Assembly (NCBI GenBank): GCA_001627335.1 | Contig: LUPK01000033.1 | Location: 1 to 64,000, forward strand | Origin: Nocardioides sp. REDSEA-S33_B3 | Lineage (GTDB): Bacteria > Actinomycetota > Actinomycetes > Propionibacteriales > Nocardioidaceae | Reading direction: 5' to 3' | Length of the DNA: 64,000 nt | Notes under the pieces: model-generated | Database searches by the model: none | What the model was told of the DNA's origin: nothing | What the model saw: the letters and a program-made list of their open reading frames with translations, nothing else | Part shown: positions 51,070-61,322 of the stretch, in pieces | Position numbering within the stretch: position 1 is the first letter of the stretch | How the letters are laid out: each line of letters opens with the position of its first letter | Position numbers and translations under genes: made by a program

Positions 51070-51909
51070 TCAGTCGTGGAACTCGCCGCAGTCGACGGTG
51101 AGCATCTGGCCGGTCACCGCCGACGCGAGGTCGGAGGCGAGGAACAGCGTCGCCCGGGCGACCTCCTCCGACGACGCGAGCCGCTTCAGATCCGTGGGGG
51201 CGGCCTTCTCGGCGTACACCTCGTCGTGGGTCTTGCTCTCGACCGCGGCGAGGAAGTCGAAGTAGCCGCGGTTGACGTCCTCGTAGATGTAGGACGGCGC
51301 GACGCTGTTGACCCGGATGCCGCGCGGCCCGAGCTCGGTGGCCAGCGAGGAGGCGAGGTGCTCCAGGGCGCCCTTGGACAGCTTGTAGCCGGCGTACTCC
51401 GGCTGGCTGGAGAAGGCCACGCAGGAGTTGAGCATGATGATCGAGCCCTTGGACTCCGCGAGCGCGTCGGCGAAGAGCGCCGAGAGCCGCAGCGGCGCGA
51501 AGACGTTGGTCTCGTTGACCTTCGCCAGCTTCTTCGGGTCGATCTGGGTGATCGGGTCCATCGGCGGGATCGCGAAGGCGTTGTTGATGACGCAGTCGAC
51601 GCGGCCGAAGGCCTCCAGGGAGCGGGCGACGAGGTTGGCGCGGGAGTCCTCGTCGGTGACGTCGGTGACGACCATCGCCACCTCGGCGCCGAGCGCCTCG
51701 ACCTCGGTGGCGACCTCCTTCAGGCGCTCCTCGGTGCGGCTGGCGATGACGAGCCTCGCGCCCATCTTCGCGGCCTCGACGGCCAGCGACCGGCCCAGGC
51801 CGGGGCCGATGCCGGAGATGACGACGACCTTCCCGGCCAGCACGGGCGCGGGGGTGTAGCGGTCCTCGATGGAGGTGTCGTGGGCGGCGGCGTAGCCGAG
51901 CTGGCTCAA
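51070..51909 (-). CDS. SDR-family oxidoreductase
   Basis: The 279-aa NAD(P)-dependent short-chain dehydrogenase has the dinucleotide loop VVVISGIGPGLGRSLA, NNAF near the middle, catalytic Ser in NSCVAFSS, and the YxxxK pair in EYAGYKLSKGALEHL, then PRGIRVNSVAPSYI. The best start is a TTG at 51909 that overlaps the DUF1214 stop, with GAAGGA seven bases before it. No ATG or GTG fits the N-terminus. The context suggests oxidation of a steroid or other alicyclic alcohol. Confidence 0.88.
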   Translation of the reverse strand: MSQLGYAAAHDTSIEDRYTPAPVLAGKVVVISGIGPGLGRSLAVEAAKMGARLVIASRTEERLKEVATEVEALGAEVAMVVTDVTDEDSRANLVARSLEAFGRVDCVINNAFAIPPMDPITQIDPKKLAKVNETNVFAPLRLSALFADALAESKGSIIMLNSCVAFSSQPEYAGYKLSKGALEHLASSLATELGPRGIRVNSVAPSYIYEDVNRGYFDFLAAVESKTHDEVYAEKAAPTDLKRLASSEEVARATLFLASDLASAVTGQMLTVDCGEFHD

Positions 51910-53126
51910 CTGATCATCCTTCTCGCGATGTGGCGCTGCCGGGCGGCGATCCGCGCGGCGTACTGCTCGTGGGTGAGGGGAGTGAGGTGCGGCAGCAGCG
52001 ACGCGACGTCGCCGAGCTTCACGACCTCGACGCTCGGCCCGTCCTCGGGGCCGAGGTCGCGCTCGAGGCGCTGCCAGCGCAGCATCATCGAGCCCGTGCG
52101 GTGGCCGGTGGTCTCCAGCCAGTTGGCGAGGTACGGCGCCGCCGGGTCGCCCGAGGGCGGCTTCTCGCTGACCACGAACCGCATCACGCCGTCCGGGTCG
52201 GTCTCGGCCTGCGCCTTGGTCAGCGAGGTCTGGTGGGTCTCGTAGTCGGTGGAGGCGTACCAGTCCGAGCCGATCTGGATCGCCTGGTACGCCGCGTCGT
52301 CGCACCGGGGCACCGAGACGACCATCGCCTCGTCCTCGCCCAGCTCGTAGTGGCCGATCGAGGAGCGCTGGGAGGCCAGCCCACCGGGGGTGGAGACCGG
52401 CGCGGTGAGGGTGTTGGCCTCCTCGGCGTACTGGAACCAGTGCGGGAAGGCGAACCAGGTACGGATCGAGGAGGTGATGGAGCGGGCCGCGACCTCGTAC
52501 TTCTTGGTCAGCAGGGCGCGGGTCAGCGGCTTCGCGGCCGCCCCGAGGGCGTCGGCGCGCTCGATGGAGATCCAGCCGGGCTCCTCGGTGTCCCAGTCGC
52601 AGAACACCTCGCGCACGATCAGCGTCTTGGCGCCGGGCTCGGCGGTGTAGGTGAACTCGAAGCTGCCCTCGGCGTCCCGCTCGAGCTCGCGGTCGTCGAA
52701 GGCCATCAGCGAGGTGGCGGCCGAGTCCGCGGTGTAGGCACCGCCCATGACCTGGAAGGACAGGTCGGCCGAGGTGCCCCGCCGCCCGCGGATCACGTAC
52801 TCGACGCCCTCGCGCAGGTAGGCGTTGAAGTACATCGCGTCGGGGTTGTCCAGGCCCTGGCGGGAGAACTGGTGCGTGGGCTGGACGAACAGCGGCCGGT
52901 CGAGGTCGTAGTCGAAGGCGGTCTGCATCGCCATCCGGATGCGCCCGGCGAGGTAGTCGTAGCCCTCGAGCAGGTCGGCCTCGGTGCGGATGAACGGTGC
53001 GGCGGCGATCAGCCTCTCGCCTTCGGCGATCGCTTCGCGCAGGGGGGCAGTGAGGTCCCAGGAGCCGTCGGTGCCGTCGACCTCGGGGTTGGCCGCCGGC
53101 TCCATGCCGTGGGGTGCGTGCGACAT
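51906..53126 (-). CDS. DUF1214-domain protein
   Basis: The 406-aa product ends in a DUF1214-like region (MMLRWQRLERDLGPEDG preceded by PYLANWLETTGHRTGS) after a beta-rich central part (GRRGTSADLSFQVMGGAYT, SFEFTYTAEPGAKTLIVREVFCDWD). There is no signal peptide and no known reaction. It lies between the LLM (15-bp gap) and SDR (overlap) genes, so it is translated with them. ATG 53126. Confidence 0.8.
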   Translation of the reverse strand: MSHAPHGMEPAANPEVDGTDGSWDLTAPLREAIAEGERLIAAAPFIRTEADLLEGYDYLAGRIRMAMQTAFDYDLDRPLFVQPTHQFSRQGLDNPDAMYFNAYLREGVEYVIRGRRGTSADLSFQVMGGAYTADSAATSLMAFDDRELERDAEGSFEFTYTAEPGAKTLIVREVFCDWDTEEPGWISIERADALGAAAKPLTRALLTKKYEVAARSITSSIRTWFAFPHWFQYAEEANTLTAPVSTPGGLASQRSSIGHYELGEDEAMVVSVPRCDDAAYQAIQIGSDWYASTDYETHQTSLTKAQAETDPDGVMRFVVSEKPPSGDPAAPYLANWLETTGHRTGSMMLRWQRLERDLGPEDGPSVEVVKLGDVASLLPHLTPLTHEQYAARIAARQRHIARRMIS

Positions 53127-58918: not shown

Positions 58919-60691
58919 TCACGTGGGAGGACGCATCCTGGCCAACCTGCTCCGCAGCGCGTCGACGCGCTCGCGGTTGGTCTGCAGCTCCACGTAGCGC
59001 TCCCCGAGCGCCCAGAGCAGCGCGTCGTCGAGCCGGCGGACGGCGCCCGGCGGGTAGCGGTAGTCCATGCGCTCCATCAGCGTCGCGGTGTCCACCGGTC
59101 GCACGATCTCGCCGAGGTCCTTCAGCGAGGTGATGCCGAGCTCCAGCACGGTGCGTGCGATCCACGCGTAGTGCTCGGTGCGCGACCACCCGGCGTCGGG
59201 GTACTGACCGGCCAGGAACGCAGCGAGGTCGCGCGGGCTGAGCCGTGGGTCGTCGTCCTCCGGCTCCGCGGGCTGGTCGCCGGTCCCCTCGCGCAGCCGG
59301 TCGCGGATCGCCGTGAACTCCCGGTCGGCGAGCTCGAGCAGCCCGGCCGCGAGGGTGAACCTGCGGTCGAACTCCGAGACGTGCTCCTCGGGGATCGAGC
59401 CCTTGTAGCGGATGTCGTGCTCGAACTCCGCCCACGCGTGCTGCAGCACGGTCCGGATCTGGACCTGCGCCTGGCGTCCGCGCAGGGCCCGGTGCTCGGG
59501 TCGCCCCTCCTGCTCGGGGTGCAGCCCGACGAGCAGGTGCCGGCTCGCGTAGCCGAACCGCCCCTCACTCGCCGTCTCCTCGCCCAGGTCCCGGTCGTCG
59601 TGCACCGCGACCTGGTCGTCGAGCAGGTCCACCACCGCCTGCACGTCGCTGTGCACGTAGGTGATCACCCGCAGCCCGATCTGGTCGGTGATGTCGCGCT
59701 GCGGGTCGGGGTAGACCGGCCGGCCGTCGACGGTCCGCGCCACCTTCGCGGCGTACGACGCCACGGACTTCGCGCGCCCGGTCACCGTGAGGTAGTTGAT
59801 GCCGGCCTCGTCCAGGATCGACGTGACCAGCTCGACGTACCGCTCGGTGGCCTCGGTGACGGCGGCGTGGTCCTCGGCGTACCGCCGCACCGCCGCGGCC
59901 GGGTCGGCGGTGCGGCGTCGCCGTGGCTCGCGCGGGGTCGGGACGAGGTCGTCGGGCAGCGTGGGGGTGACGACGTAGCCGGTCTCGAAGTCGCCGTACG
60001 TCGTGGTCCGCTCGGGCCGGCGGTCCGCGAACATCGCGACGTAGGCGCACACCACGGCGTCGACCTGGTCCTCGACCACCCTCAGCTCGCTCTTGCGGCC
60101 CGCGCGCTCGGCCGCCCGCCGCAGGCCCTCCCAGGCCGCGGCGCCCGGGGCGTCTCCGGTCAGGCGCAGTGGCGGGTCCGCCTCGGCGAGCCCCTCGAGG
60201 AGGCCGATCAGCACCAGCAGCTCCCCGCGCAGCTGCTCGATGTCGCGGCCGGACCGCTGCTTGTACTTCAGCGTCCTGCCCAGCCGGAAGAGGACGACGG
60301 TCGCGGGGTGCGGGTAGACCTCGATCGCGCGCCGCCGCCGGCCCGAGCGCGGGTTCATGTCGAGACCCAGGCGCCCGGCGATCCGCGCCCCGCGCGGCTG
60401 CCCGCGGAACTCGGGCTTGCCGGTGTTGGAGGGGTGCGCCCCGGCGTCGAAGGTCGCGAAGTCGCGGTTGAGCAGCGCCTCCGCCGGCCGGTTGCCCGTG
60501 GGGTTGACCACGACCAACGGTGCGTCGACGGCGACCAGGCACTCGTCCCCGGCGTACGGCGTCAGGGCCGTCACGATCTCGTCGTCGCTGCGCACGGCGC
60601 TGACGTGGACCAGGCGACCGTCGCGGTCGAGGACCGCCAGGCCGGTCGGGTTCCGGTCGCCCCACGCCAGGTCGACGCCGATGAAGTTCAT
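58919..60691 (-). CDS. DUF429 - RelA/SpoT-domain fusion protein
   Basis: The 590-aa protein joins two domains. Residues 1-255 are DUF429, a predicted RNase-H-like nuclease, with acidic residues at expected places: Asp7 (GVDLAWG), Asp56 (VAVDAP), Glu124 (IEVYPHP), Asp211 (QVDAVVCAYVAMF). Residues about 270-470 are a (p)ppGpp-synthetase-type domain: GRAKSVASYAAKV, ITDQIGLRVITY, FGYASRH, and QVQIRTVLQHAWAEFEHDIRYK. At residue 409 the normally catalytic Glu of the ExQIRT motif is Gln (codon CAG). A helical C-terminal domain follows. There is no hydrolase or regulatory domain. ATG 60691 (MNFIGVD) is the natural DUF429 start. Cellular role unknown: stress signalling, tRNA modification or phage defence are possible. 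Confidence 0.88.
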   Translation of the reverse strand: MNFIGVDLAWGDRNPTGLAVLDRDGRLVHVSAVRSDDEIVTALTPYAGDECLVAVDAPLVVVNPTGNRPAEALLNRDFATFDAGAHPSNTGKPEFRGQPRGARIAGRLGLDMNPRSGRRRRAIEVYPHPATVVLFRLGRTLKYKQRSGRDIEQLRGELLVLIGLLEGLAEADPPLRLTGDAPGAAAWEGLRRAAERAGRKSELRVVEDQVDAVVCAYVAMFADRRPERTTTYGDFETGYVVTPTLPDDLVPTPREPRRRRTADPAAAVRRYAEDHAAVTEATERYVELVTSILDEAGINYLTVTGRAKSVASYAAKVARTVDGRPVYPDPQRDITDQIGLRVITYVHSDVQAVVDLLDDQVAVHDDRDLGEETASEGRFGYASRHLLVGLHPEQEGRPEHRALRGRQAQVQIRTVLQHAWAEFEHDIRYKGSIPEEHVSEFDRRFTLAAGLLELADREFTAIRDRLREGTGDQPAEPEDDDPRLSPRDLAAFLAGQYPDAGWSRTEHYAWIARTVLELGITSLKDLGEIVRPVDTATLMERMDYRYPPGAVRRLDDALLWALGERYVELQTNRERVDALRSRLARMRPPT

Positions 60692-60782: not shown

Positions 60783-61226
60783 GTGCACTACACCGAGTAC
60801 GACACCCGACTGGCGGCCTACGCCGTCGTCACCGACGACGAGGGTCGGGTGCTGCTCGCGCTGTGGAACGAGGGCTCGCGGCGGCAGTGGACGCTGCCCG
60901 GCGGCGGCTTGGAGCTGCACGAGCGCGCCGAGGAGGGCGCGGTCCGCGAGGTGCTGGAGGAGTCCGGCTACCACGTCGAGCTCGACGAGCTGCTCGGCGT
61001 CGACTCCTACGTCTTCCCCGCCGAGCGCCGCAGCGCCTCGACCGACCGCCCGATGAAGGCCTTCCGGGTGCTCTACCGCGCCCACGTCGTCGGCGGCGAG
61101 CTCACCCACGAGCTCGACGGCAGCACCGACGAGGCCGCCTGGTTCCACCTCTCCGAGATCGCCGGGCTCGACCGGGTCTCCGTGGTCGACGTGGGGCTGC
61201 GGATGGCGGGCCTGATCCTGCGCTGA
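60783..61226 (+). CDS. NUDIX hydrolase
   Basis: The 147-aa pyrophosphohydrolase has a complete Nudix box, beginning GGGLELHERAEEGAVREVLE and ending with the conserved EESG, fitting GX5EX7REUXEEXGU. The start YTEYDTRLAAYAVVTDDEGRVLLALW is typical of nucleotide or NDP-sugar hydrolases. GTG 60783. Divergent from the DUF429-RelA fusion gene, sharing a 91-bp promoter region; a functional link with nucleotide alarmones is possible but not shown. Confidence 0.95.
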   Translation: MHYTEYDTRLAAYAVVTDDEGRVLLALWNEGSRRQWTLPGGGLELHERAEEGAVREVLEESGYHVELDELLGVDSYVFPAERRSASTDRPMKAFRVLYRAHVVGGELTHELDGSTDEAAWFHLSEIAGLDRVSVVDVGLRMAGLILR

Positions 61227-61254
61227 GCGGTCCCCTCGGGCGACCCCCGCAAGG

Positions 61255-61322
61255 GCCGAACCGGCGTATTGATACGCCGGCTCGACCGGCATCGAACCGG
61301 CGTATCAATACGCCGGCTCGGC
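61255..61322. terminator. 68-bp nested palindrome, bidirectional terminator
   Basis: The 68 bp are almost fully self-complementary. Each half also contains its own 9-bp hairpin (CCGGCGTAT/ATACGCCGG), so either one long stem or two tandem hairpins can form. It lies between the convergent NUDIX and GNAT genes and begins with GCCGAACCGGC, the stem used at 8099 and 25097. Confidence 0.85.

What the first reader, a model, noticed from the sequence alone, without database searches (positions are those of the whole stretch)
58919..60691. DUF429 nuclease-like domain fused to a RelA/SpoT synthetase-like domain with Glu-to-Gln at the catalytic position
Seen: one 590-aa frame holds DUF429 (residues 1-255) and an alarmone-synthetase domain with GRAKS, DQIGLR and FGYASRH intact, but QVQIRT in place of the usual E-x-QIRT (Gln409, codon CAG). 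Known: the equivalent Glu (E335 of E. coli RelA) is needed for ppGpp synthesis, and E335Q is the standard inactive mutant; several toxic small alarmone synthetases act in phage defence. Inferred: this may be a nucleotide sensor, a synthetase with altered chemistry (for example pyrophosphate transfer to tRNA), or a defence effector combined with an RNase-H-like domain.
Basis: partly seen in the sequence, partly recalled or inferred. Interest (0 to 1): 0.75.

Follow-up and report, generated by a model that had tools for sequence, protein, structure and literature searches.

The report
Alarmone enzyme family lacking catalytic glutamate
This soil-bacterium gene encodes a predicted nuclease domain joined to an alarmone-synthetase domain that, like nearly all of the close relatives read here, lacks the glutamate other alarmone synthetases carry, and because the related mycobacterial enzyme RelZ is reported to be active, the family likely makes alarmones without that residue.

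Summary
The ORF (590 aa) is DUF429 (5-234) plus RelA_SpoT (305-431), with Gln409 where other synthetases have the Syn4 (ExQIRT) Glu. It is not an isolated oddity nor a new architecture: it is a homolog of mycobacterial RelZ (MS_RHII-RSD, actRel group), reviewed as making pGpp>ppGpp>pppGpp and cutting RNA-DNA hybrids. Of 140 RelZ-type synthetase domains read, 137 lack Glu (Gln, Ser, Ala, Thr or Asn); three Nocardioides fusions keep it. Controls keep it: 32 of 32 long Rel, 23 of 23 RelS-like, 17 of 24 other SAS (7 unread). Fourteen other active-site columns are invariant in the 128 Glu-less domains checked. In S. aureus RelP this Glu binds Mg2+ with Asp107, so its loss fits the Mg2+-independent activity reported for M. 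smegmatis RelZ. I could not read that protein; all 212 proteins newly listed by two mycobacterial-query searches have Ser. Best reading: an active synthetase with a changed metal/base arrangement. Main rival: a nucleotide-sensing pseudo-synthetase. Defence or tRNA-toxin roles find no support in neighbourhoods or distribution (RelZ-type match in 135 of 147 congeneric genomes).

The parts
58919..60691 (-). RelZ-type ORF, 590 aa plus stop (ATG at 60691)
59990..60679 (-). DUF429 domain (residues 5-234), predicted RuvC-like RNase H fold
60671..60673 (-). Asp7, invariant in 51 of 51; candidate nuclease metal ligand
   Evidence: role inferred from RuvC likeness
60524..60526 (-). Asp56, invariant in 51 of 51; candidate nuclease metal ligand
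   Evidence: role inferred
60059..60070 (-). Asp208-Gln-Val-Asp211 (DxxD), both Asp invariant in 51 of 51; candidate nuclease metal ligands
   Evidence: role inferred
59399..59779 (-). RelA_SpoT synthetase domain (residues 305-431)
59684..59686 (-). Asp336, counterpart (by alignment offset) of the Mg2+ ligand Asp107 of S. aureus RelP; invariant
   Evidence: PMC5794853 passages
59465..59467 (-). Gln409 codon (CAG) at the Syn4 ExQIRT Glu position, counterpart (by alignment offset) of RelP Glu174
58934..59236 (-). C-terminal helical region (residues 486-586), also present in SYNTH-only relatives
   Evidence: secondary structure; sequences

Best explanation
This is a homolog of mycobacterial RelZ, in which a DUF429 domain (predicted RuvC-like nuclease fold) is joined to a small alarmone synthetase domain, and it likely makes pGpp and (p)ppGpp although almost all of its family has lost the Syn4 glutamate. 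Shown: domain order, the missing Glu, invariance of 14 other active-site columns, and the Glu in outgroups. Inferred: ATP and a guanine nucleotide bind as in RelP/RelQ; one conserved Asp (336) plus substrate phosphates hold the metal, or the reaction needs little metal; Gln409 (Ser or Ala in relatives) need not act as base. The DUF429 part is predicted to cut an RNA:DNA-type substrate, as reported for RelZ. The two parts are modular: each occurs without the other in relatives.
For: Both domains in one ORF. Mycobacterial homologs in A1 are 57-62% identical; several are named 'bifunctional ribonuclease/(p)ppGpp synthase' by NCBI. Syn4 position: RelZ-like 131 = Q67 S50 A9 T1 N1 E3, plus 9 more, Q3 S6. 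Controls with Glu: RelS-like by score 23 of 23, other SAS 13 of 13, long Rel 32 of 32, further SAS 4 of 11 with 7 unread. In the 128 Glu-less domains, R306, K308, S312, K316, D336, R341, D368, Y381, S383, H385, Q411, R413, H425 and K430 are each 128 of 128, so the site looks to be under purifying selection. SaRelP binds Mg2+ with Asp107 and Glu174 (PMC5794853, passages), which correspond to 336 and 409 by the end offsets (that alignment was not printed). M. smegmatis RelZ is reviewed as active, GMP>GDP>GTP (PMC7591505, passages), and as Mg2+-independent, while C. glutamicum RelS is highly Mg2+-dependent (PMC5566576, passages). Fold.
Against: No activity was tested here. The M. smegmatis protein was not named in the lists, and no exact match to its PurB was found in the 396 genomes; its Ser is inferred from relatives. 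The papers that report the activity were not readable. E335Q is used as the catalytic mutant of E. coli RelA (PMC4432633, passages). Asp336 stays invariant, which sits oddly with truly metal-independent chemistry. Three fusions keep Glu (L130, L175, L178).
Confidence: 0.6

Rival explanations
1. Nucleotide-sensing pseudo-synthetase: the SYNTH domain would bind ATP and a guanine nucleotide but hardly turn them over, and the binding state would control oligomerisation or the DUF429 domain.
For: No Glu in 137 of 140 RelZ-type domains, the position drifting among Q, S, A, T, N, with a fewest count of 12 state changes (Glu state included) on a 91-row tree, while binding residues stay fixed. E335Q serves as a catalytic mutant of RelA.
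Against: RelZ of M. smegmatis is reviewed as making pGpp, ppGpp and pppGpp. Asp336, a metal ligand by analogy, is invariant. SYNTH-only forms exist, in 7 of 22 checked genomes without any DUF429 match, so the domain is not kept merely as a DUF429 regulator.
Confidence: 0.25
2. Altered chemistry: the domain would pyrophosphorylate another acceptor (for example RNA ends, tRNA, or another nucleotide), alarmones being side products.
Confidence: 0.1
3. Anti-phage defence effector or toxSAS-type toxin.
For: The DUF429 part matches PADLOC candidate PDC-S44 (E 8.2e-82) and the SYNTH part PDC-S33 more weakly (E 9.7e-9).
Against: RelZ-type synthetase match in 135 of 147 congeneric genomes, no widely recurrent neighbour, housekeeping-type neighbours, and in mycobacteria a place beside purB. 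None of the neighbours scanned matched a family that I know as a toxSAS antitoxin.
Confidence: 0.05

Closest known systems
RelZ / MS_RHII-RSD (MSMEG_5849) of Mycobacterium smegmatis, actRel group
   Same: N-terminal DUF429 ('RNase HII' in the papers) and C-terminal SYNTH in one chain; 57-62% identity to mycobacterial homologs in A1; Syn4 Glu absent (Ser) in all 212 proteins newly listed by the two mycobacterial-query searches.
   Different: Gln instead of the Ser of the mycobacterial relatives; not beside purB in the window; activity of this copy untested; the M. smegmatis sequence itself not read.
RelS (Cg2324) of Corynebacterium glutamicum and RelS-like SAS
   Same: Actinobacterial SYNTH domain with HAWAEFEHD/HAWAEIEHD-type sequence after Syn4.
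   Different: No DUF429; 23 of 23 RelS-like domains (by score; two of them, L133 and L134, are outliers on the tree) have Glu; RelS is reported highly Mg2+-dependent. That the set includes RelS orthologs is inferred.
RelP / RelQ (SAS2, SAS1)
   Different: Have the Syn4 Glu; single-domain; 19-27% identity in the structural alignments.
RuvC resolvases (for the DUF429 part)
   Different: 10-17% identity; substrate and cutting untested.

Membership tests
RelZ (DUF429-SYNTH dual-domain SAS) | DUF429 followed by RelA_SpoT in one open reading frame | tested here: met
RelZ (DUF429-SYNTH dual-domain SAS) | Full-length similarity to mycobacterial proteins named bifunctional ribonuclease/(p)ppGpp synthase | tested here: met
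   57-62% identity for L072 and the P0196-P0333 rows of A1; names on part of the rows
RelZ (DUF429-SYNTH dual-domain SAS) | Makes pGpp/ppGpp/pppGpp | not testable with these tools
   known to me only for M. smegmatis RelZ, from reviews
RelZ (DUF429-SYNTH dual-domain SAS) | Cuts RNA:DNA hybrids and R-loops | not testable with these tools
   reported for M. smegmatis RelZ; candidate nuclease Asp residues invariant
Canonical RelP/RelQ-type small alarmone synthetase | Syn4 ExQIRT glutamate | tested here: not met
   Gln409
Canonical RelP/RelQ-type small alarmone synthetase | Synthetase fold | tested here: met
toxSAS / CapRel toxin-antitoxin or defence system | Adjacent antitoxin gene or defence context | tested here: not met
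   neighbours LysR, NUDIX, GNAT, DnaK, racemase, aldo/keto reductase; no neighbour family in more than 16 of 80 loci; PADLOC candidate matches within the protein itself are told
RuvC-like RNase H superfamily (DUF429 part) | RuvC-like fold with acidic active-site pattern | tested here: met
RNase HII (label used in the RelZ papers) | RNase HII fold match | tested here: inconclusive
   one search lists RuvC, TEFM and a few other entries for residues 1-240; a family not listed is not excluded

The most novel reading that the evidence does not exclude
The RelZ branch of alarmone synthetases works without the Syn4 glutamate: after one loss following (or near) the DUF429 fusion, the position drifted among Gln, Ser, Ala, Thr and Asn while the other catalytic contacts stayed fixed. 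Pyrophosphate transfer would run on one metal-holding Asp (336) or nearly without Mg2+, without a carboxylate base, and with a preference for GMP. This would make the 'catalytic Glu' dispensable in nature and explain the Mg2+-independence reported for RelZ against the Mg2+-dependence of RelS.
Probability: 0.45. Interest if true: 0.75.

Novelty: new member of a known kind. Interest (0 to 1): 0.5.

Why it matters
The Syn4 Glu is treated as required for alarmone synthesis, and its Gln mutant is used as a dead control. A widespread, strongly conserved family that naturally lacks it, with one member reported active, makes the role of that residue directly testable and gives natural Glu/Gln/Ser/Ala variants to compare. 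It would also bear on how pGpp-biased synthetases choose GMP.

Tried and rejected
Decayed single copy: rejected; across 51 representatives under 75% identity R306, K308, S312, K316, D336, Y381, S383, R384, H385, Q411, R413, T414, H425 and K430 are 51 of 51, while some nearby columns vary (G305 38 of 51, R319 50 of 51). Defence island: no support, though DUF429 matches PADLOC PDC-S44. A compensating acid: none clear. Asp365 is acidic in 122 of 128 Glu-less domains and Gly in all 3 Glu-bearing fusions, but it is also acidic in 11 of 13 other SAS that have Glu, and the three are one clade; column 391 is acidic in 80% of Glu-less domains against 33%, 39% and 0% in the other groups, but the window has His there. 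Regain versus retention of Glu in L130/L175/L178: the free quick trees nest them, but the tree holding all Glu-less rows together scored higher (lnL +39, p-AU 0.94), so a single loss is not rejected; long branches meet there. RNase HII was not among the listed fold rows. No model coordinates were available, so no distances were measured; pTM is 0.55, so the domain arrangement is unsure. No paper saying that RelZ lacks the Syn4 Glu was found in searches; the original RelZ papers were not readable, so this is no claim of priority.

Rows missed or dropped: L053/L060 missed by the regex (Ala); P0237 and P0255 missed by it too (Ser by eye; P0255 has His at the Gln411 place); 7 SAS unread; L131, L133 and L134 left out of the second tree. 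P0002 and P0003 are both the window's protein. Some genes are counted twice across locus sets (L072/L086, probably L026/L127).

Full report
What is there. It encodes 590 aa with DUF429 at residues 5-234 and RelA_SpoT at 305-431. Gln409, codon CAG at 59467-59465, stands where solved synthetases have the Glu of ExQIRT. The same genome also has an ordinary long Rel (784-aa frame, Syn4 Glu) and a 261-aa small synthetase with Glu (L082).

What family it is. The 120 listed of 3811 homologs all carry DUF429 and RelA_SpoT. Searches with mycobacterial relatives return, among others, proteins that NCBI names 'bifunctional ribonuclease/(p)ppGpp synthase'. Atkinson et al. already noted the DUF429 fusion in Mycobacterium species in the actRel group (PMC3153485, passages). 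M. smegmatis RelZ (MS_RHII-RSD, MSMEG_5849) is reviewed as a hexameric enzyme that makes pGpp, ppGpp and pppGpp (GMP>GDP>GTP), cuts RNA:DNA hybrids and R-loops, and loses both activities when its domains are separated (PMC7591505, passages; see also PMC10112252, passages, and PMC8622095, passages). The original papers were not held.

Is the Glu missing by accident? No. In 51 representatives under 75% identity the column is Q29 S21 A1. In a profile alignment of 167 SYNTH domains, RelZ-like domains (over 240 bits) number 131: fused Q66 S35 A9 T1 E3, and without DUF429 in the frame S15 Q1 N1; RelS-like (120-240 bits) 23 of 23 and other SAS 13 of 13 have Glu. Nine more Nocardioides domains gave Q3 S6, 32 of 32 long Rel gave Glu, and of 11 more SAS 4 gave Glu and 7 could not be read. 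So 137 of 140 RelZ-type domains lack Glu; some genes are counted twice across locus sets. The three exceptions (L130, L175, L178; fusions in the window's genus) form one clade. A single loss of Glu below them is compatible with the data (p-AU 0.94), although the free quick trees nest them.

Mechanism. A pocket that keeps the nucleotide contacts and one metal ligand but gives up the second ligand is either an enzyme with changed metal/base needs or a sensor. The Mg2+-independent activity reported for M. smegmatis RelZ, against the high Mg2+-dependence of C. glutamicum RelS (PMC5566576, passages), is what one would expect if RelZ lacks Glu174's counterpart and RelS has it. This is inference: neither named sequence was read here. 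M. smegmatis was not found among the 396 Mycobacterium genomes sampled; the two nearest by PurB (97% and 96% to PDB 4NLE, recalled as M. smegmatis), G078 and G345, have Ser. PMC5566576 says that RelS and Rel of C. glutamicum deviate slightly from ExQIRT, without saying how in the passages seen. E335Q is used as a catalytic mutant of RelA (PMC4432633, passages), which weighs toward the sensor reading. I rate activity 0.6, sensor 0.25.

Modularity. Seventeen Glu-less RelZ-type SYNTH domains stand without DUF429 in the frame, 15 in the window's genus and 2 elsewhere (L125, L131). Of 22 genomes checked, 7 (G849, G873, G478, G875, G867, G850, G510) have no DUF429 match; 10 with a SYNTH-only gene have a separate DUF429 gene scoring 163-174 bits, against 86-99 for the fused ones, and G758 has a weaker one, 61.7 bits. 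In Mycobacterium, 201 of 248 sampled genomes match the RelZ query; in the truncated list 72 rows include SYNTH and the other rows shown reach residue 307 at most (my count). I fetched 12 of those DUF429-only loci, 9 of them picked because the lists showed them beside purB. In all 12 the DUF429-only ORF stands divergently beside purB, where the fused gene stands in others (for example G078, G247, G194), with no SYNTH remnant detectable in the 5.5-7.5 kb read. So each half can be kept alone, which sits awkwardly with the reported inactivity of separated RelZ domains.

Context. Window neighbours are a LysR regulator, a divergent NUDIX gene, a GNAT acetyltransferase, DnaK, an Asp/Glu racemase and an aldo/keto reductase. 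Across 80 relatives' loci (home-made ORF calls, up to six genes either side) no neighbour family recurs in more than 16, at varying places. A RelZ-type A2 match at E<=1e-40 is found in 135 of 147 genomes of the genus, some SYNTH-only; in the class 29 of 128 genomes match at E<=1e-5, 10 of them over 240 bits. PADLOC lists DUF429 as candidate PDC-S44, but nothing around this gene looks like a defence island.

Verdict. The sequence observation is confirmed. The fusion is a new member of the known RelZ kind. What is worth attention is that the Gln is one state of a nearly family-wide loss of the Syn4 Glu in a lineage with an enzyme reported to be active.

Noticed in passing
window 61254-61322: Two copies, 36 nt apart, of a REP-like palindrome (CGGCGTATYRATACGCCG) between the NUDIX and GNAT genes; with up to 2 mismatches it occurs at 39 sites in the genome, the reversed control at 0.
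   Followed up: partly
L233-L244 (Mycobacterium genomes): A DUF429-only ORF occupies the divergent place beside purB that fused relZ holds in other mycobacteria, with no synthetase remnant found, in 12 of 12 loci fetched (9 of them chosen for lying beside purB).
   Followed up: partly
L125, L128, L129, L131, L163-L172, L176, L181, L182: Glu-less RelZ-type synthetases without DUF429 in the frame; 7 of 22 genomes checked have no DUF429 match at all.
   Followed up: partly
L130, L175, L178: Three Nocardioides-genus DUF429-SYNTH fusions that keep the Syn4 Glu and have Gly at the column of Asp365.
   Followed up: partly
window 60783-61226 (+): NUDIX hydrolase gene starting 91 bp from the relZ-type start, divergent; weak PADLOC PDC-S07 match. 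Possible shared promoter region, untested.
   Followed up: no
window 51909-53126 (-): 406-aa ORF with no Pfam match at E<=0.001, beside a luciferase-like oxidoreductase.
   Followed up: no
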